Source: Antedon bifida (Eukaryota > Echinodermata > Crinoidea > Comatulida > Antedonidae). Taken from it: DNA of 64,000 nucleotides. The stretch lies in assembly GCA_963402885.1 (NCBI GenBank), contig OY727100.1, forward strand, positions 21,795,665 to 21,859,664, written 5' to 3'. Shown in pieces: positions 27,864 to 40,689 of the stretch. The position numbers and the translations under genes are program-made. Every line of letters starts with the position of its first letter. Within the stretch, counting starts at the first letter, position 1. The notes below the pieces were generated by a model. The model saw only the letters and a program-made list of their open reading frames with translations. It made no database searches and was not told where the DNA came from.

Positions 27864-28340
27864 TGGCATATATCGAGTTTGATAGAACAACTGGAATATC
27901 ATCAAAGCAAAGTAGTGATAGTCAAATTAATTATCCAACTTACATATTATGTATCCGACTTATATATTTTGAAAAGTAAATATTCTAATTTAAAGTATTC
28001 AAATGAAATTGATGTTAATTAAAACTATATAACTGTAGTTTTTATACAAATGGGTGTGTGGGCGTATGGATGGCATGTTAGATAATGTTTCATAGAAATT
28101 GCCTACATTTGACCTACAGAGAATATATGTTTGTGGTCAGTAATGACGATTTTAGAAGTAGAGGTCTAATACTTGTGGACTCATAACACTCTTAGTCTTA
28201 TAGACTAAAACATTGTAAGACAAATGGACTATTTTTTCCTGTTGTATTTTGAAAGACTTTTATGGTGGCAAATAATGAACTTTTATTAAATTCCGGTAGA
28301 TAAGAAGGAAACTGACTAATGTCACATAATATTAATAGTC
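27864..28340 (+). pseudogene. Duplicated last exon and 3' flank of the YWTD gene
   Basis: Matches 33671-34140: GATAGAACAACTGGAATATC, then the post-stop flank with AAATTCCGGTAGATAAGAAG. The coding part has frame damage and lacks the other five exons. A further piece at 28590-28725 matches 34410-34560 (ACTCTTTTAAGTACCAAAGT). Confidence 0.88.
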
Positions 28341-28725
28341 ATTCACTTTGACAACAAATTTGAATATGACAAAAAATGTGAATATCTTTAATAGAATGTT
28401 TAGCAAGGACGTGTTTAAAATGATTCTTAAACATCATTATATTATTCTACAATAAATTTAGTTCAAATTAAGGACGTCCCGGCCTTGGTTCTATAAAATA
28501 TTTCTATCCATGGTTTTAATGCGTGTGTTTTATCTTTAAAACATTGTGTGTGACAAACCCCTTACTACTAAGAACGAACCCTTTTATATTTGTTGTTTAC
28601 TCTTTTAAGTACCAAAGTTATACCATATTATATAAGAAGTTTGTTTAAGACTTAGACGTAAGACGTAAGACTTAATTAATCGAAGCCTGTACTTTATTTT
28701 AAAGCGTGTTTATATTTGTGTTCTT

Positions 28726-30715: not shown

Positions 30716-33700
30716 ATGATTGTTTTTGCTTGGTTTTACCTGGTGATCAACTCCCATGTTTTGGGGGATAGGCCTGCTACGGTCCTGCCAACCACGGATA
30801 CTGGTAAATAATTATTAATTGTTAACGTACTTTGTCTTAAGTGTTGTTATTAGGGTGAAGAACAAAGTTTGATGGATACCAAATGCAGTAAGAGACCTAC
30901 CTAATCGGATCCAATGCACAGTGCTTGGGCCCAAGTTTTGATTTATCATCTTTTAGTAAAAATGAATCTTTCTAAATAGACTCTGCTTCAACAGGTTATC
31001 CCTCAATCAGACTTACTCTGGACACCTACCATGGTGACTGATATATAATAGTCTGTGACAGTTGCTATTACTTTACACCGATATTTTAAAGCCCTAAAAA
31101 ACTGTTTAGTGGTAATAGTAATAATAATTAATACTTATAATAGCAGTAACATGTCAATAGCTGAAATGATGATGAGCATGTTTATAATGTACCATATTCT
31201 AGAAAAAATCCATCTGGTGTCAGATGATTTGTTAAGCTAGTACTAGTAGCCGAAATGTAGCAAACTAGTAATATTATGATAAAATAAATCATCTATTTTG
31301 AATATAATTAGTTTTCCTATTGCATTTTTAGAGTTTGGAAGTGGAGATTATAGTTCTATAGAGGTTGGAAGTAGAGATTATAGTTATGATCCCGAAGAAT
31401 GTGTTATGACTTACAAACACTGGACAGAACAAAGTAAGACGTGTTGTTATTATATGATTATTACTTTTAATAATTTACTTATTCAATAACGTAAATCAAT
31501 ATACTGATTTATAACCAATTTTCGATTGTGTAAATATCAATTAGATACTAATAAATTAATAATAAGCTATATTAGTTGTCTTGGGTGATTATCTTTTTAT
31601 TATTACATTAAATTAATCGTTATTGTTTTTACAGATAATATTATATTTGTGGCCAACTGGTCTCCACCTGGAATTTACATGTCAAATGTAAGTTCCACTT
31701 TAAGGTTTGAGGTAGCGATGGAGGATGTAGAGTTAACCGCACCCTCCGCTCTTGGTTATGATGGCACCATATCTACACTATACTGGTCTGACTTTGGCAA
31801 GAATACCATTGAACGATATTCATTTGATACTAACCAACATGAAGTGTTTGTGTCTAATATTGTGTATGGTAAGAAAACAATATTTAGTCTAAAATTTTGT
31901 TTAAATTTTTTTTTTTAATTAAAAAGAATAGGCATCTTTATATTTTGGTAGCAATTGTTTAAATTGTGTATGCTTATTATAGTACAAATAGGCAATCTTC
32001 AGAATATTTTAATGGTTGAACCACATCCTAAATTGTGTATGCTTATTATAGTACAAATAGGCACTCTTTTGGATATTTTAATAGTTGAACCACATCCTAC
32101 ATTGTTTTATTGTTAAATAATCATGAATATAATAACAATAAAGCAAAATCAGTCGTTAGGAAAGTTACGTCACAAAATCAACGCGTACTGTATAGAGACT
32201 ATAATTATTATAGTCTATCAAAACAAATTTTAGAAAGTTCATAATTTCTCTGCCAAACAAAGCGGAAAGCGTCCTGAATCCGTCTCTCTGTCAAATAATG
32301 TCTATGTTATTCCATACTCTGTCATCAAACACAATTGGGATTAAACAAGTTTATATGAGAATCTTTTATTAGATCTTCTACAAGTTTAATAGTATAGGCC
32401 TACATACAATAAATACTCTTATTTATGGCTTGAAGAGTTGGACATTTAAAATGTGTATACAGACGGGTTTGTCTTTATGAAACCCTATAGCATAACTGTA
32501 GTTAGATTGTATATTATAGTTTGTGATTATAACGGGTTTCAATTTTTCATCATTTATAAAGTGCGTAATTTAGCCGTTGATGGAGCTGGAAAGAAGCTTT
32601 ATTGGACAGACTATTACCAAAACCGAATTGAAGTAATAAATCTGGATGGAACAAACAGAAGAATACTGATTGACACAGAATTAAATTGGCCAAATGCAAT
32701 TGAGATAGACACAACCAACGGGTATGTCACTCTCTATTGCTACCGTTATATTATATCTCTTCAATGAGATTAACTAGTTAACTTCACATATCCATAATAT
32801 CGATTATTACGTAAACATGTATTATTAATGCATTAGCAAAATAATTTACCTATTTTAATAATGAATTAGGAAAGAAATAATTATTTATATTTTTTCATAC
32901 ATTCATTATAAGAATTTAATTTCATTTAATAACTCAGCTTTAGTTATTTTGTAAGTGTTTCTCTGGTATATATGTCACTGTACACAGTAACTGTAATTAA
33001 CATACTATATTTAATTAGATACCTGTACTGGACTGATACAGGATTCGACAAGATAGAGCGAGTGAAGTTAAATGACTTGAGTACAAGAACCGCTTTAGTG
33101 ACAACTGGACTTGGTTGGCCATCCGGACTTGTTTTAGCAGTTCCCGGTAAGTTATGGGTCATAAATGTATGCATGTTATATATTGATACTCTAATGTTTT
33201 AGGCTATCTAGGTAGGCTCTTAGGTTAAATCCTTTAAGATTAAACAACACGATCATTTTGCAGTAAGATCATGGGGTAAGACTAATTTGGTCATGTTTAA
33301 TACATTGTGATGCTAAAATGTTACAATTATATGTTAAAATGTAATAGTACCAAATTCCTTAACTATTTTACATTTATACCTGTCAACAGTCTTCAAACAG
33401 TTTTCAAACTTGCTCACGTAGGCACTTTTACTATGAGTGAAAGGAGCACATCCATTATTATCAAAATATTAAATTGAATCCATCCGCTATTTCACTGTAG
33501 CTTTTATATATTTTAGATGGAAAGATGTATTGGTGTGATTCCGACAAGAGGGTGATTGAGGAAGCTAACCTTGATGGATCTAACAGAAGAACGATTATAA
33601 CGCTTCCTGGAAAGAGTCCGTTTAGAATTGACATTTATAGAAACTACCTGTACTGGACAGAACCCTATGGTGGTGGCATATATCAAGTTGATAGAACAAC

Positions 33701-33764
33701 TGGAATATCATCAAAGCAAAGTAGCGATAGTCGACTTAATGATCCAAGAGACTTATATATTTAA
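30716..33764 (+). CDS. Secreted YWTD (LDL receptor class B) repeat protein, 319 aa
   Basis: Exons 30716-30803, 31332-31433, 31635-31868, 32562-32721, 33019-33146, 33517-33764; 960 nt in consistent phase. It opens with a hydrophobic signal-like MIVFAWFYLVINSHVLG, then an acidic linker with a short internal repeat (GSGDYSS / VGSRDYSY). Five class B blades follow: LYWSDFGKN, LYWTDYYQNRIEV, LYWTDTGFDKIERV, MYWCDSDKRVIEE and LYWTEPYGG. There is no EGF module, LDL-A module or transmembrane segment, unlike LRP receptors. A YWTD beta-propeller normally needs six blades, so the fold may be incomplete or use the divergent N-terminal strand. Probable secreted ligand- or receptor-binding protein; partner unknown. 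Part of the gene is duplicated at 27864. Confidence 0.85.
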
Positions 33765-34680
33765 AAAAAGTAAATATTCTAATTTAAAGTATTTAAATGA
33801 AATTGATGTTGATTAAAACTATATAATTGTAGTTTTTCTTTATACAAATTGATGTGCGTATGGCATGTTAGATAATGTTTAATAGAAATTGCCTACATTA
33901 TTTCTTTAGTATTAAAGTAGGCCTAGAATAGCATATAATGTTTGTGGTCAGTAACGACCATTTCGGAAGTAGAAGTCTAATACTTGTGCACTCATAACAC
34001 TCTTATAGACTAAAACATTGTAAGACAAATGGACTATTTTTTTTCTGTTGTATTTTAAAAGACTTTTATGGTGGCAGATAATGAACTTTTATTAAATTCC
34101 GGTAGATAAGAAGGAAACTGACTAATGTTAGTTATTCACTTTGACAAAATTGAATTTAAAAAACTGTTTGTACTTGAAAAAAATTGTAACTTAAAGCAAA
34201 ACAACGTGGGATTTTGGGGTGGGTGGGAATTTTCATAAGTGAGACTTAATATTCATTTTTTATTTATCGACATCATGGCGGAGAACCTGGTTTTAAAACG
34301 TCTTAGTGTTGAATTCCGGTATTCGTTTAATACTATTTTTCAGAGTCTCGCTCAAAAATTCTTTTATTTCTTCATGGATTAATGAATAGATGGATACATA
34401 TCGACGGTGACATCAACTCTTTTAAGTACCAAAGTTATACCATATTATATAAGAAGTTGTTAGTCGAAGCCTGTATTTTATTTTAAAGCGTGTTTATATT
34501 TGGTGTTTACTCTTTTAAGTACCAAAGTTATACCATATTATATAAGAAGTTTGTTTTTTAATCATAAATGTAAGCCTAACAGCGGCCTAACAATCATTGA
34601 ATAAGAATACGGGCGTTAGCCGTCGTCATAGGGGAATTTCCCTTTTAGGATTGTTGGTGGCGCTCTGCATATTCAAAGAA
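33765..34680 (+). other. YWTD gene 3' flank
   Basis: Shared with the duplicate at 27.9-28.7 kb. Internal repetition of GTTTACTCTTTTAAGTACC at 34412 and 34505. No further ORF. Confidence 0.55.
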
Positions 34681-34774: not shown

Positions 34775-35352
34775 GGTAAGTTTTAGTTACTAAAGTAGTT
34801 TAGCTGTTAAATTTAATGTAATAAAGAATATTATTATTAATTCAAAACAAACAAGAAGTAACAGTATAAAAAGAATACCTCCCTATATGTAGTGCTTTGA
34901 CGTCTGGGCAGGCAGGGTAAGACCCGGCACGTTTTTGCTAATCCAGGCAGGGGACTAGCACGCACTGAAGCCCACCACAACACATGTTACCTAAAGGCTT
35001 AGGCCTACTTTAGTTGCACGCCGTAATATGCTAACATATTCGTCAATGCCTAATATATTAAATATTAAAAATTATAACTGATAATATTAAATATAAATCC
35101 AGGACATTTATGAATGGAATATTCTTGGAGAACTATTTTAGGAATTCAATAAGATGTTCATCTTTTTATAAAATTATTTGAAATAATTAATATTTAAAAA
35201 TTTGAAAACTCAATAGAAAAAAAAATTATCCTTTTAAAACACTAGAGAATAAATAATAATAGGCCAAAGTTGTTATAATTTGTTTTTCATTTTGGGGTTA
35301 TACTGTATAATTTTTTGATAATCATATTTTGAAAATTGTTTGTTTTGGTAGT

Positions 35353-38300
35353 ATGGCGTCAAATGCGAATGAGGTAGCGGAAGGCCCTGTGTTTGAGCTC
35401 AAACCCTCGACAGAAAGTGACGAAGCATCTGAAATGTCATCATCACGGCAATTTAATGAAGACGAATTCCGACCTTTGCGTAGAGGTTTCTTCTTGTATT
35501 TCAGTTATGGCAGCAATTTGTTAAGAGAACGACTTCTCATCAAAAATCCTTCTGCCACATTTTTGACAATTGCAAAACTAGAGGTAATTTTTATCCTGTT
35601 TTCCTTTATGAATTATGTTCTTATTTCATTCCAAATTTTTAAATAATATTAATCTCCATTTTACCTTTATTTACGGGTGGGAAGGGAGGGAAGAAATTAC
35701 TGAATTCAGATGCACAGTAACTACATTTTTTTCTGCAGTAAAATATGCTTTGTTGTTTTTGTTTCAATTGGGAAGTCTACACTATCAAACTAGTAAAAAT
35801 GTGATGTGCCAAAATATGGTACTGATATGACATCATCATGTCCATATATGGGCACATATTTTAATAGTGTATACATTGTTTATGATTGAATAAAAAAAAC
35901 TTAAATAATTTAATAAAAGTTTAAAGAAACAAAATATAAATAAGAAAAATGTAGTTACTGCAGTAACTGCAGTAGAATAATTTTTAAAAATACAGGTACA
36001 TTCAAACATTTTGAAGCAACAACAGTGTGTATGATTACAACAGAAAAGCTTACTAAATAATGTAATAAAATGTAAACAAAAACACAATATAGTTACTGCA
36101 GTAAAACTAACTGCAGTGGAATAATTTTTAAAATGCATGTACAGTACATTCAAACCATTTTTTGAAACAACAACATTTAACTATTTGTTTACAAGAATAT
36201 TTTATTGAAACTTAATAGCTGAAATATTTCAGTTTTATGACCATCTTCACACGTCTCATTTCTGGCGTTCTGAGTGAACTCATTGCCTGTTTGACCTCAA
36301 CTTAATTGTTCATGTATTGATTAGAAGCTATTTAAGACAAAACAATTGATTGTTTCATTGAATAATCTGCCCATGAGTTAATTTAAAGAATACTTCTTAA
36401 TGATTTTATTCTTACTAATTGCAATGGAACTGTTTTGTTGATATCAGTTTTTGAATTTTTACAATATTTGCATTTCCCACCCACAAATCAACCAACAGAT
36501 AAAGACAGGGGACATCCCTATTTACAGGCAACACATATTCAGGGTACACTACATTAAAGAGATACTTCTATTTAGGGGACACACCTATTTAGGGGCCATG
36601 CCTATTAATGGGACACCTATTCAGGGGATACAACATTAAGGGGATACTTCTATTTAGGGGACACACCTATTAATGGGACACCTATTCAGGGTACACCACA
36701 TTAAGAGGATATTTCTATTTAGGAGACACGCCTATTAAGGGGACACGCCTATTCAGAGGACACCTCTATTCAGAGGACACCATATTAAAGGGATACTTCT
36801 ATTTAAGGGACATGCCTATTAAGGGGACACGCCTATTCAGAGGACACCATATTAAAGGGATACTTCTATTTAGGGGACGCACCTATTAAGGGAACATGCC
36901 TATTAAGGGGACACGCCTATTCAGAGGAGACCACATTAAGGGGATACATCTATTTAAGAGACACCACTGTTAAAGGGACACTATGGGTTTTAACACTACG
37001 CCCAACCTCTATTCAGGGGACACCTATGAAGAGAATACCTAAAGTTGCCTTAAACTCTATTGAATGTCATTGTACTCTCATATTAATAATAGTCTAGCCA
37101 ACGTATTTATTAGTTTCTTTGGTTTTTTAGGATTATAAATTAGTTTTTGGTCAACAAAAATCGTGGAAAAGTTCTGTATGGAAAGGTGGCGTAGCAAGTA
37201 TAGAATATTCACCCGGTGATCATGTGTGGGGTGTCGTTTGGAAACTTAGCAGGCGCCACCTTACAACACTAGATCAGTAAGGTTTTTTTTATACTTTGAT
37301 TACTGTAGTAACATACTGTATGGTGTATGATTAAATAGTCTGAAACTGCTAGTCCTATACTAGAGGCTGAGCAGAAGAAAAGCAGCCTATAGTACACCTT
37401 TGGACAATGGTCCATTAAGCTCTGTCTACACCATCAAACTTTATGTGACAACAAAATGTGATGTGCCCATATATGAACATGATGATGTCATATCACTACC
37501 ATATTTGGGCATATCACTACCATATTTGGGCACATCACATTTTTGTGTCAAACTAGTTTGACAGTGTAGATAGAGCTTTACTAGAGCATATATTCTGTTC
37601 CCTGCTGATCTTTTATATTATACTATTTTTTTCCCTCACAATCAACAAAGTACAAAAGGTATTTATATAAATAAAATAAGGTAAAAGTATGTGAAAGAAG
37701 ATCAAATAAATTTTTTTATTGACCTTTTTATTGACTAGCTGAAATACCAACATGGCTTTGAATTGAATTTAAATAAATTAATTGAATTGAATTTAAATAA
37801 ATTAATTGAATTTAAATAAATTATTTCATTATTTCCTTATATGAATAGTCAACTAGGAGTACATCTTCATATATATCAACGTTTTGACACCACTGTCACA
37901 ACCCAACATGACGAAGGCCTCCCGGTCTACACCTATCACATAGAGCGGTTTATCCCCATGAAACCCTCCCCCCAGTATGTCGACGTTATTCTTATGGGTG
38001 CTAGAAACGAAGGCATACCACAAGATTATTTAGACTCACTCGCTGAAGTCGATCATAACCGTTACCAAGGAAACGTACGTGCGTATCAGGAAACGTTGAT
38101 GTTGATAAAAGATTGGGAGGAAGCGAGGAAAAAGACTCGCAAATGTATAGTCTTGTAAAAGTTGGCATGGAAATGAATGCTGTATGAAAGGTACTGCGAG
38201 TTGGTCTATGGCATTGTGGTCTGTTGTATGGTTATTGTGGTTTGTGCCAAGTATTGAAGTACTTGATGTGGTGGTCGTTGCTCTGTGATGTCGCTCTCCT

Positions 38301-39551
38301 CTTCGCTACTTGAATATATTTACCAATTCTTGGCATGCTCTTCAAAACGCATTCAGAAAAAACTTTTTCCCAACATGAGTGTCTGCCTGTCTGTCTGTTT
38401 GTCTGGATAAATGACTGAATATTTTGCTTTTATTCAATTAAAATGACAACGATCTTTTATTTTATATTTTTGTCTTTTGAGTGTAATGAATTTATTGTTT
38501 ATATTATTATAAATCCTAGCAGTCTATATTAATGATTTCTACACATCAAGCAATAGTTCCAGAGTTTTTTTTCACTCTTGCTTTATTTTATTTTTCAGTC
38601 TTGATTTTTTCACTCTTGCTTTTTTTCACTCTTGCTTTATTTTCACTCTTGCTTTATTTTTACTCTTACTTTATTTTTCAATCTTGCTTTATTTTTCACT
38701 CTTGCTTTTTATTTTACTCTTCCTTTATTTTTCACTCTTGCTTTTTATTTTACTCTTGCTTTTTATTTTACTCTTCCTTTATTTTTCACTCTTGCTTTTT
38801 ATTTCACTCTTGCTTTTTATTTTACTCTTGCTTTTTATTTTACTCTTGCTTTTTATTTTACTCTTGCTTTTTATTTTACTCTTGCTTTTTATTTTACTCT
38901 TGCTTTTTATTTCACTCTTGCTTTTTATTTTACTCTTGCTTTTTATTTCACTCTTGCTTTTTATTTTACTCTTGCTTTTTATTTTACTCTTGCTTTTTAT
39001 TTTACTCTTGCTTTTTATTTCACTCTTGCTTTTTATTTTACTCTTGCTTTTTATTTCACTCTTGCTTTTTATTTCACTCTTGCTTTTTATTTCACTCTTG
39101 CTTTTTATTTCACTCTTGCTTTTTTTCCACTTTTAATTTTTTTTATTCACTAGTTAATTTTTACTCATTTTTAAATTCAGTCTTGCTTTAATATTTTTCA
39201 CTCTTGGTTTTTCTCATTCTTTATTGTTTAAAACTGTATATATTATTGACTTTATAGTCGGTATATATTTTTATTTTTTTTTTAAGACAAGAACGAGGAT
39301 ACCATGGAATAGAAGTGAACACCGAATCGACTACGGAAGAAACATTAACTTGCCGTACGTACGTCATCAGCAACGAGGTAGTTTTATGTCCACCACACCC
39401 AAATTATTTAGATGTGATCGTCAGGGGTGCCATACAAAACGAGTTAGGCGAGGACTATATTAAGAAATTAAAAGCAATTGAGCATAATGGCTCTGAGGAA
39501 ACAACTTCTATATACCTTGACGTTCTTAAATTAATAGAACAAAATATTTAA
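35353..39551 (+). CDS. GGCT: Gamma-glutamylcyclotransferase with two alternative last exons
   Basis: Cytosolic enzyme of glutathione turnover that converts gamma-glutamyl amino acids to 5-oxoproline. Exon 1 35353-35583, exon 2 37131-37276, then either exon 3a 37849-38158 (228 aa) or exon 3b 39287-39551 (213 aa). Both fit the same phase-2 junction. The substrate loop YGSNLL (residues 52-57) and GDHVWGVVWKL are typical. The catalytic glutamate (human E98, in LDEQEGV) falls just after the exon 2/3 junction: exon 3b gives LDQQERG (Glu128), exon 3a gives LDHQLGV (Leu128). Residues 1-45 extend beyond the human N-terminus and are acidic and Ser-rich. The ATG at 35353 follows an acceptor; an in-frame ATG at 35329 is upstream of that acceptor and less likely. 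Confidence 0.92.
35715..36125. mobile_element. Family C palindromic sequence, several partial copies
   Basis: GTTACTGCAGTAACTGCAGT-type motifs occur near 35725, 35950 and 36095, with a MITE-A copy inserted in the first. GGCT intron 1. Confidence 0.65.
35776..35876. mobile_element. MITE family A copy, short
   Basis: AGTCTACACTATCAAACTAG to TTTTAATAGTGTATACA with the core ATATGGTACTGATATGACAT. GGCT intron 1. Confidence 0.85.
36490..37050 (+). repeat. Satellite made of GGGGACAC..CTATT units in GGCT intron 1
   Basis: Degenerate 16-17 bp units such as AGGGGACACGCCTATTA are grouped into larger repeats carrying GATACTTCTATTT. They are related to the dispersed CCCCTATTAAGGGGACAC module and to the TSNAXIP1 array. 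Confidence 0.85.
37416..37577. mobile_element. MITE family A copy, reverse orientation
   Basis: TTAAGCTCTGTCTACACCATC to TTTGACAGTGTAGATAGAGC, core on the minus strand with a duplicated CACTACCATATTTGGGCA. GGCT intron 2. Confidence 0.88.
37849..38158 (+). other. GGCT: GGCT alternative terminal exon 3a (Glu to Leu, CaaX end)
   Basis: Encodes 103 residues after the junction, still clearly GGCT (MKPSPQYVDVILMGARNEG). The catalytic-glutamate position reads Leu (LDHQLGV). The C-terminus is EEARKKTRKCIVL: a basic stretch and a CaaX box. Leucine at X is the usual geranylgeranyltransferase-I signal, so this isoform is predicted to be prenylated and membrane-bound. The frame is fully open, which argues against decay. 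Confidence 0.85.
38565..39130 (+). repeat. 18-bp minisatellite between GGCT exons 3a and 3b
   Basis: About 30 units of CTCTTGCTTTTTATTTTA, with TTTCA variants. The array is strongly pyrimidine-rich on the coding strand. The unit length is a multiple of three, so all three plus frames are open by chance of periodicity. It ends about 155 bp before the exon 3b acceptor. Confidence 0.93.
39287..39551 (+). other. GGCT: GGCT alternative terminal exon 3b (keeps the catalytic Glu)
   Basis: Splices after exon 2 in the same phase. Gives LDQQERGYHGIEV with the glutamate in place, then CRTYVISNE and IKKLKAIEHN, close to vertebrate GGCT. It has no CaaX box and ends EQNI. This is the canonical enzyme end. 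Confidence 0.85.
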
Positions 39552-39869
39552 AATCGGATATTGTCACGGCTACAGTATGATCCAGGAATCGCAGTGTGAG
39601 CAGTGAACAGACTAGCAATCTATATAAGGGGATTTTTTTTCTATAATTTGGGTGGGTGTTTTTTAAAAATAACAATGAACATTTTATTCACGTTTATAAT
39701 GGCAATGATTGTTCAGCACACATGGTTGCACATTATTAGCTTACTATCTGTGTAGGAATCAATATGTTATGCATACAGTGCCAGCCGTTATCTCTGTTTT
39801 GTACATTGTCAATACAATTAATTGCTTTCTTGATGTCATTTACATATCTACGGTGGCATAATGCAGGGG

Positions 39870-40250
39870 GCAAAGGTCCCTGGTGTAGCACTCCTAACAC
39901 ACCAACACTGGGTAGTTGCATTGGATGCTCTTGACCCTTAAGCTCTGGGGCCCCTGGTTTAGCACTCCTAAGTGCCCTCCAACACTGGGTAGTTGCATTG
40001 GACTGCTCATGCTCTGGGGCCCCTGGTTTAGCACTCCTAAGTGCCCTCCAACACTGGGTAGTTGCATTAGACTGCTCAAACTCTGGGGCCCCTGGTTTAG
40101 CACTCCTAAGTGCCCTCCAACACTGGGTAGTTGCATTAGACTGCTCAAACTCTGGGGCCCCTGGTTTAGCACTCCTAAGTGCCCTCCAACACTGGGTAGT
40201 TGCATTGGATGCTCTGGGCCCTTAAGCTCTGAGGCACCTGGGTTTAGCCA
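39870..40250. repeat. 69-bp minisatellite downstream of GGCT
   Basis: About five units with GCCCTCCAACACTGGGTAG and CTCTGGGGCCCCTGG. Locally GC-rich, unlike its surroundings. It shares GGGGCCCCTG motifs with the dispersed repeat at 43605-43760. Confidence 0.9.
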
Positions 40251-40689
40251 GTGAACGCTCATATTTACATCAAGTACGATACAAAAACCCCTCCCCATCC
40301 CTTTTTTCATGGAAGCTGTATAGTTGATAATGACAGATTACACTATACATATGCAATACCATATGCTGTAAAATAAATATACTGCATTTGCTTCTATTTT
40401 GACCAAATAATATTATCGACAAACGCATTGTTGCCAATTGAAAAAATGTACTAGTATTATTATTATTATTATTATTAGTATATGTACTGTATATAGTAAT
40501 ACCTGTATATTATTAATTAGTTATAAATAGATTAATTTATTACTCTATTGTTTACTACTATGTATCTGTAGCATTTGTTTTAATGAAAAAGATGAAACTT
40601 TGATTTTGTTTTTGTCTTGTAATGGTATTGATCCGCAGTCAAAAGTCAAAATTGAGAGGTTTTACTCTATGTACAATATTATACAGTAT

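What the first reader, a model, noticed from the sequence alone, without database searches (positions are those of the whole stretch)
35353..39551. GGCT alternative last exons predict a switch between a soluble enzyme and a prenylated isoform lacking the catalytic Glu
Two terminal exons fit the same phase-2 junction after exon 2. Exon 3b supplies the glutamate that corresponds to human GGCT E98, known to be required for catalysis. Exon 3a supplies leucine there and ends KKTRKCIVL, a basic stretch plus a CaaX box of the geranylgeranyl type. Exon 3a keeps other family motifs (SPQY, MGA), so it is not decaying. One gene could make a cytosolic cyclotransferase and a membrane-bound form that binds gamma-glutamyl ligands without normal turnover. 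I know of no lipid-anchored GGCT.
Basis: partly seen in the sequence, partly recalled or inferred. Interest (0 to 1): 0.86.

Follow-up and report, generated by a model that had tools for sequence, protein, structure and literature searches.

The report
Crinoid GGCT gene, two last exons
A feather-star gene for a glutathione-pathway enzyme carries two alternative endings, one of which lacks the catalytic residue and ends in a possible lipid-anchor signal; the sequence is real, but whether the animal uses that ending is untested.

Summary
The window is crinoid DNA (near Antedon mediterranea). A three-exon gamma-glutamylcyclotransferase (GGCT) gene has two homologous last exons that fit the same phase-2 junction. 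Exon 3b gives a 213-aa enzyme with the catalytic Glu (human E98). Exon 3a gives a 228-aa protein with Leu there and a C-terminus KKTRKCIVL.

Exon 3a is no chance frame. Alone it passes Pfam's AIG2_2 cut-off, as 3b does. It keeps 17 of 25 family-conserved positions, and its basic-plus-CaaX end occurs in 1 of 1029 open frames of the window. The two exons are the only matches over that cut-off that a search of the own genome returned.

Use of 3a is not shown. Two protein searches found no 3a relative. The three crinoid entries found are 3b-type. Exon 3a evolves fast. Donors at its end or inside could also join it to 3b in frame.

Best reading: an alternative-last-exon switch, working like CDC42 or KRAS, between a soluble enzyme and a membrane-anchored, catalytically dead GGCT-fold protein (0.42).

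The parts
35353..35583 (+). Exon 1 of GGCT (ATG to donor GAG|GTAATT), with YGSN motif; shared
   Evidence: 90% to A. mediterranea P0001 by tblastn
37131..37276 (+). Exon 2, shared, ends in phase 2 (donor TCA|GTAAGG)
   Evidence: 96% to P0001
37849..38158 (+). Exon 3a: proposed alternative last exon; Leu at the place of human E98; KKTRKCIVL end and TAA stop
38144..38155 (+). Codons for CIVL, the CaaX-like end (X = Leu), behind the basic stretch
   Evidence: prenyl type recalled
38437..38442 (+). ATTAAA, first of the two commonest poly(A)-signal hexamers behind exon 3a
   Evidence: consensus match only, commonness recalled
38608..39124 (+). 18-bp pyrimidine-rich minisatellite (28.9 copies) between 3a and 3b with 29 TCTT words; possible splicing-regulator sites
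   Evidence: role inferred
39287..39551 (+). Exon 3b: last exon that carries the catalytic Glu; 95% to A. mediterranea, 59% and 53% to the two Anneissia proteins

Best explanation
One crinoid GGCT gene carries two homologous, alternative last exons after exon 2. Joined to 3b it makes the ordinary cytosolic cyclotransferase. Joined to 3a it makes a GGCT-fold protein that keeps the YGSN motif and three conserved tyrosines but has Leu for the general acid/base Glu, so it should not turn substrate over. Its basic tail and CIVL end should be geranylgeranylated and hold it on membranes. Shown: both exons, their phase, homology, the E to L change, the tail. Inferred: splicing to 3a, loss of activity, prenylation, membrane place, ligand binding.
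For: Both exons fit one junction in frame. Exon 3a alone passes PF13772's cut-off. 17 of 25 conserved columns kept against 7 of 32 variable ones matching the majority, Fisher p 0.001. In the exon-3 tree the 3b exons of Antedon and Anneissia exclude 3a with 97/96 support, so 3a is probably older than that split, while an unused frame of this length would have a half-life of about 1.6-8 My at assumed rates. One of 1029 window frames ends in basic residues plus CaaX. No second GGCT gene was returned by two searches of the own genome (4 matches, all at this locus; 3 matches, 2 over cut-off, both at this locus). Glu98 is the acid/base residue, and equivalent Glu mutations of ChaC1 and GGCT abolish activity (PMC7022552, passages).
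Against: No transcript of 3a was seen. Two protein searches found no 3a relative. The A. mediterranea and the two Anneissia proteins are 3b-type, with no 'isoform' in their names. Exon 3a has the longest branch and four non-conservative losses, and is no closer than 3b to the vertebrate rows by identity (30-36% against 34-40%). Its acceptor has a poorer pyrimidine share (0.68 against 0.77 for exon 2 and 0.82 for 3b). The tree's long branches could wrongly place 3a (warning). Conservation of the CaaX in a relative could not be tested.
Confidence: 0.42

Rival explanations
1. Exon 3a is a relict: an old last exon beside 3b, still open but no longer spliced or spliced only as noise. The CIVL end is chance.
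For: No 3a relative in two protein searches; 3b-type only among the three crinoid proteins found; longest branch; catalytic Glu and three further conserved residues changed non-conservatively.
Against: Frame open over 102 codons with conserved columns favoured; short expected life of an unused frame; CaaX with basic tail rare in this window; in-frame splice fit.
Confidence: 0.33
2. Exon 3a is an internal, skippable exon: a donor at CTT|GTAAAA (38154/38155) or at CCA|GTATGT (37974/37975) joins it in frame to 3b, so KCIVL would lie inside a longer protein, or be left out, and no CaaX exists.
For: Both donors leave phase 2, which 3b accepts (counted by hand).
Against: The donor at the stop scores -0.04 against 6.8 and 4.5 for exons 1 and 2, in a weight matrix written from memory; the other scores 4.3 but cuts the domain at SPQY. 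The product would hold all or part of two C-terminal halves. In-frame fit is expected by chance for 1 in 3 sites.
Confidence: 0.1
3. Exon 3a is spliced and makes a stable, soluble pseudoenzyme or a protein with another chemistry; the CaaX is not used or another acidic residue replaces the Glu.
For: ChaC2 is reported to keep activity after either of two Glu is changed (PMC7022552, passages). CaaX sites are not all used (recalled).
Against: No Glu lies in the LDHQLGVHLHIY stretch; CIVL with a basic stretch resembles Rho-type ends (recalled).
Confidence: 0.15

Closest known systems
GGCT (human C7orf24; PDB 2pn7, 2i5t)
   Same: Chain residues 16-177 (isoform A, best E 3.8e-43) and 16-169 (isoform B, best E 6.5e-41) align; YGSN motif; exon 3b keeps the catalytic Glu
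   Different: Isoform A has Leu for E98 and a longer basic tail ending CIVL; both have a long N-terminal extension
CDC42 exon 6 / exon 7 alternative last exons
   Same: Works alike: the choice of last exon sets the lipid-modified C-terminus (PMC6411841, passages)
   Different: Both CDC42 forms are lipid-modified and differ in the last 10 residues; here the exon also swaps the catalytic half-domain, and only one form has a CaaX. Not homologous
KRAS4a / KRAS4b exon 4
   Same: Exon choice changes the last part of the fold plus the membrane tail (PMC11636682, passages)
   Different: Both KRAS forms keep a CaaX and have comparable intrinsic activity
Asterias amurensis two-domain GGCT (P0002)
   Same: Nearest row to exon 3a (domain 2, 38% over 89 columns)
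   Different: Keeps QEG; two domains in one chain; ends KDAKL, no CaaX

Membership tests
GGCT (PF13772 / PF06094) | Profile match over curated cut-off | tested here: met
   Isoform A 74.7 and 28.3 bits, isoform B 68.2 and 35.5 bits, cut-offs 27 and 22.8; exon 3a alone 51.1 bits to PF13772
GGCT (PF13772 / PF06094) | YGSN substrate loop | tested here: met
   YGSNLLRER in shared exon 1
GGCT (PF13772 / PF06094) | Acid/base Glu (human E98) | tested here: not met
   Leu in isoform A; met in isoform B. Isoform A is thus a GGCT-fold protein that fails the catalytic-residue test
GGCT (PF13772 / PF06094) | Cyclotransferase activity | not testable with these tools
   needs purified protein
CaaX-prenylated protein | C-a-a-X at the very C-terminus | tested here: met
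   CIVL before TAA, if 3a ends the protein
CaaX-prenylated protein | Motif kept in relatives | tested here: inconclusive
   No 3a relative found; no other crinoid genome was available to me
CaaX-prenylated protein | Lipid on the Cys | not testable with these tools
   needs labelling or mass spectrometry
Alternative-last-exon gene | Two candidate terminal exons in phase with one donor | tested here: met
Alternative-last-exon gene | Transcripts with each exon | tested here: inconclusive
   3b-type protein models exist in A. mediterranea and Anneissia; none found for 3a; no transcript data held

The most novel reading that the evidence does not exclude
A crinoid GGCT gene uses an old duplicated last exon to make a geranylgeranylated, catalytically dead GGCT at membranes, which binds gamma-glutamyl ligands as a sensor, carrier or decoy, opposite the soluble enzyme of the same gene; a pyrimidine-rich minisatellite before 3b may set the choice.
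Probability: 0.28. Interest if true: 0.75.

Novelty: new variant of a known kind. Interest (0 to 1): 0.5.

Why it matters
If real, one splice choice would switch an enzyme of glutathione breakdown on or off and move it from cytosol to membrane at once. The listings of four literature searches showed no prenylated GGCT (15 of 110 papers listed; all 9, 3 and 5 listed; I saw listings and, for one of these papers, passages). I made no search aimed at inactive GGCT isoforms. It would extend a splice-to-lipid switch known from small GTPases to a metabolic enzyme, and give a natural binding-only GGCT to study.

Tried and rejected
Separate gene for 3a: tblastn of the 14 fetched proteins against the window (E up to 0.05) found exon 1-like and exon 2-like sequence at one place each, and two genome searches returned no further GGCT locus (only the best candidates are scored there). 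The third PF13772 match, on C1 (21.6 bits, under cut-off), passes PF06094 (GGACT) with two exons.

Other acceptors near the start of 3a (AG at 37856 and 37859) shift the frame, counted by hand, so the Leu is not an artefact of the junction chosen.

Retrocopy that would prove an exon 2-3a mRNA: a 24-base junction pattern with up to 3 mismatches matched 0 times. This says nothing about transcription.

Age of the exon duplication: the tree puts 3a with Asterias weakly (81/77), but holding all crinoid exons together is not rejected (p-AU 0.164). Unsettled. The same tree joins the 3b group with Physella (88/83) and warns that long branches meet.

Structure: AlphaFold2 of A. mediterranea P0001 with 13 rows gave mean pLDDT 55.1, too poor to use; no fold search was made. 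Isoform A was not sent, because the tool asks for proteins that the DNA gives letter for letter and the isoform is spliced.

Bacterial promoter and terminator scan and Rfam on 35000-40500 (0 matches) are not informative here. Papers on Antedon genomes (listing and passages) and on alternative last exons with CaaX (listing) gave only the CDC42 precedent.

Full report
What the window is. A search with the spliced isoform A gave 14 proteins out of 160 candidates, the best being 'gamma-glutamylcyclotransferase-like [Antedon mediterranea]' (69% over 93% of the query); an Asterias and two Anneissia proteins come next. Exon 3b is 95% identical to that A. mediterranea protein over 88 columns. The window is therefore from a crinoid near A. 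mediterranea; the species itself is not given. The genome has 315,563,634 bases in 27 contigs.

The gene. Exon 1 35353-35583, exon 2 37131-37276, exon 3a 37849-38158, exon 3b 39287-39551. Both last exons continue the phase-2 junction. Isoform A has 228 residues and ends KKTRKCIVL; isoform B has 213. Both match PF13772 and PF06094 over the curated cut-offs and solved human GGCT over chain residues 16-177 and 16-169 of 188 (best E 3.8e-43 and 6.5e-41). The solved chains 2i5t, 3cry and 2rbh show E, Q and A at one column; that column reads L in isoform A and E in isoform B. PMC7022552 (passages) states that Glu98 is the acid/base residue of human GGCT and that equivalent Glu mutations of ChaC1 and GGCT abolish activity; PMC13039682 (passages) used an E98A mutant to test whether the enzyme activity matters. 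PMC7022552 also names tyrosines 87, 109 and 144 of ChaC2 as conserved in the pocket of this fold. Isoform A keeps a Tyr at the three conserved Tyr columns of exon 3 (Y135, Y155, Y169); that these are the pocket tyrosines is my inference.

Is exon 3a real? Its frame alone scores 51.1 bits to PF13772 and that of exon 3b 47.0, cut-off 27. A search of the whole genome scored 4 candidates and returned 3 matches: these two exons, over cut-off, and one under it in a GGACT-type gene. Its G+C is 0.44, against 0.33 in intron 1 and 0.29 between exon 2 and 3a. In an alignment with 10 non-crinoid exon-3 rows, 3a keeps 17 of 25 conserved columns and agrees with the majority in 7 of 32 variable ones (Fisher p 0.001); 3b keeps 19 of 24 and 3 of 29. 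By plain identity 3a is no nearer than 3b to the vertebrate rows (30-36% against 34-40%); it is nearer to Asterias domain 2 (38% against 33%).

Age. The tree has 15 rows and three well-supported branches. Exon 3b, A. mediterranea and both Anneissia exons form one group (97/96) that leaves 3a out; 3a has the longest end branch (2.46) and sits with Asterias (81/77); a tree with all crinoid exons together is not rejected (p-AU 0.164); the program warns of long branches. If 3a is older than the Antedon-Anneissia split, it has probably outlived the expected life of an unused frame, half-life 1.6-8 My at assumed rates of 2e-9 to 1e-8 and an assumed indel share. A neutral simulation from today's sequence met no stop in 49%, 24%, 14% and 2% of 300 runs each at 10, 20, 30 and 50% amino-acid change. 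A recent fall into disuse cannot be excluded by this.

The tail. Of 1029 stop-to-stop frames of at least 30 aa in the window, 7 end in a broad CaaX, 4 of them in a narrower geranylgeranyl-like form, and 1, exon 3a, has at least 4 basic residues in the 10 before it. Most of those frames are not genes, so this is a chance level, not a proteome rate. X = Leu pointing to geranylgeranyltransferase I is recalled knowledge.

The case against use. A search with words from exon 3a alone found 6 candidates and none scored; a search with the exon 3a frame alone, to catch short models, found no candidate sharing three words. These searches reach close relatives only: Asterias, 38% alike, was not returned. 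But a 3a isoform of A. mediterranea at the likeness seen for 3b would have shared many words. The names of the A. mediterranea and Anneissia entries carry no 'isoform'; that this usually means one protein product per gene in RefSeq is recalled. So a 3a isoform is either absent there, unannotated, or not in the database.

Rival splicing. CTT|GTAAAA at the stop of 3a and CCA|GTATGT inside it would both join 3b in frame (phases counted by hand). In a weight matrix written from memory they score -0.04 and 4.3, against 6.8 and 4.5 for the donors of exons 1 and 2. The first is poor; the second cannot be dismissed by score, but its product breaks the domain at SPQY. Two further donor-like sites in 3a (38075, 5.0; 38079, 4.4) are out of phase with 3b. 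An ATTAAA lies at 38437, fitting an end of transcript behind 3a. Between the exons lies an 18-bp pyrimidine-rich minisatellite with 29 TCTT words in 517 bases, against 5 in 1547 bases of intron 1, 1 in 572 bases between exon 2 and 3a, and 6 in 432 bases just behind 3a. TCTT as a polypyrimidine-tract-binding-protein word is recalled; PMC6411841 (passages) says PTBP2 takes part in Cdc42 splicing. A role here is speculation, and a simple repeat gives such counts without any function.

Comparison. As a mechanism it resembles CDC42 and KRAS alternative last exons (passages). As a family member, isoform B is a GGCT by the sequence tests made; isoform A has the profile match and fails the catalytic-residue test. 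Literature searches for GGCT with prenyl, geranylgeranyl, CaaX or echinoderm showed no lipid-anchored GGCT in their listings (15 of 110 listed, all 9, 3 and 5 listed); the one paper opened among these speaks of cyclotransferase and CaaX in different proteins (PMC4951486, passages). The library lacks most subscription journals.

Verdict. A real, unusual gene layout with a bold but untested reading. One look at a second crinoid genome would decide most of it.

Noticed in passing
27879-28646 and 33688-34556: Two copies, about 5.8 kb apart, of the 3' end and following sequence of a gene with an LDL-receptor class B repeat (Pfam match at 33501-33764; the first copy was not scanned), 88-98% alike in blocks, with a third, 75% copy of one block at 34400: a tandem duplication just upstream of GGCT.
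   Followed up: partly
36568-36981, 38608-39124, 39943-40214: Three minisatellites in and behind the GGCT gene; the last has 4.0 copies of 69 bp at 97% match, so it is young or homogenised.
   Followed up: partly
37446-37550: 30-nt inverted repeat, 90% complementary, 45 nt between the arms, between exon 2 and exon 3a; MITE-like, with a related stretch in intron 1 near 35775 seen by eye only.
   Followed up: partly
L008:1140-1800: GGACT-type gene of the same genome on contig C1 (two exons pass PF06094), which has Glu at the catalytic-type place (LDRLEG, by eye).
   Followed up: partly
   Followed up: no
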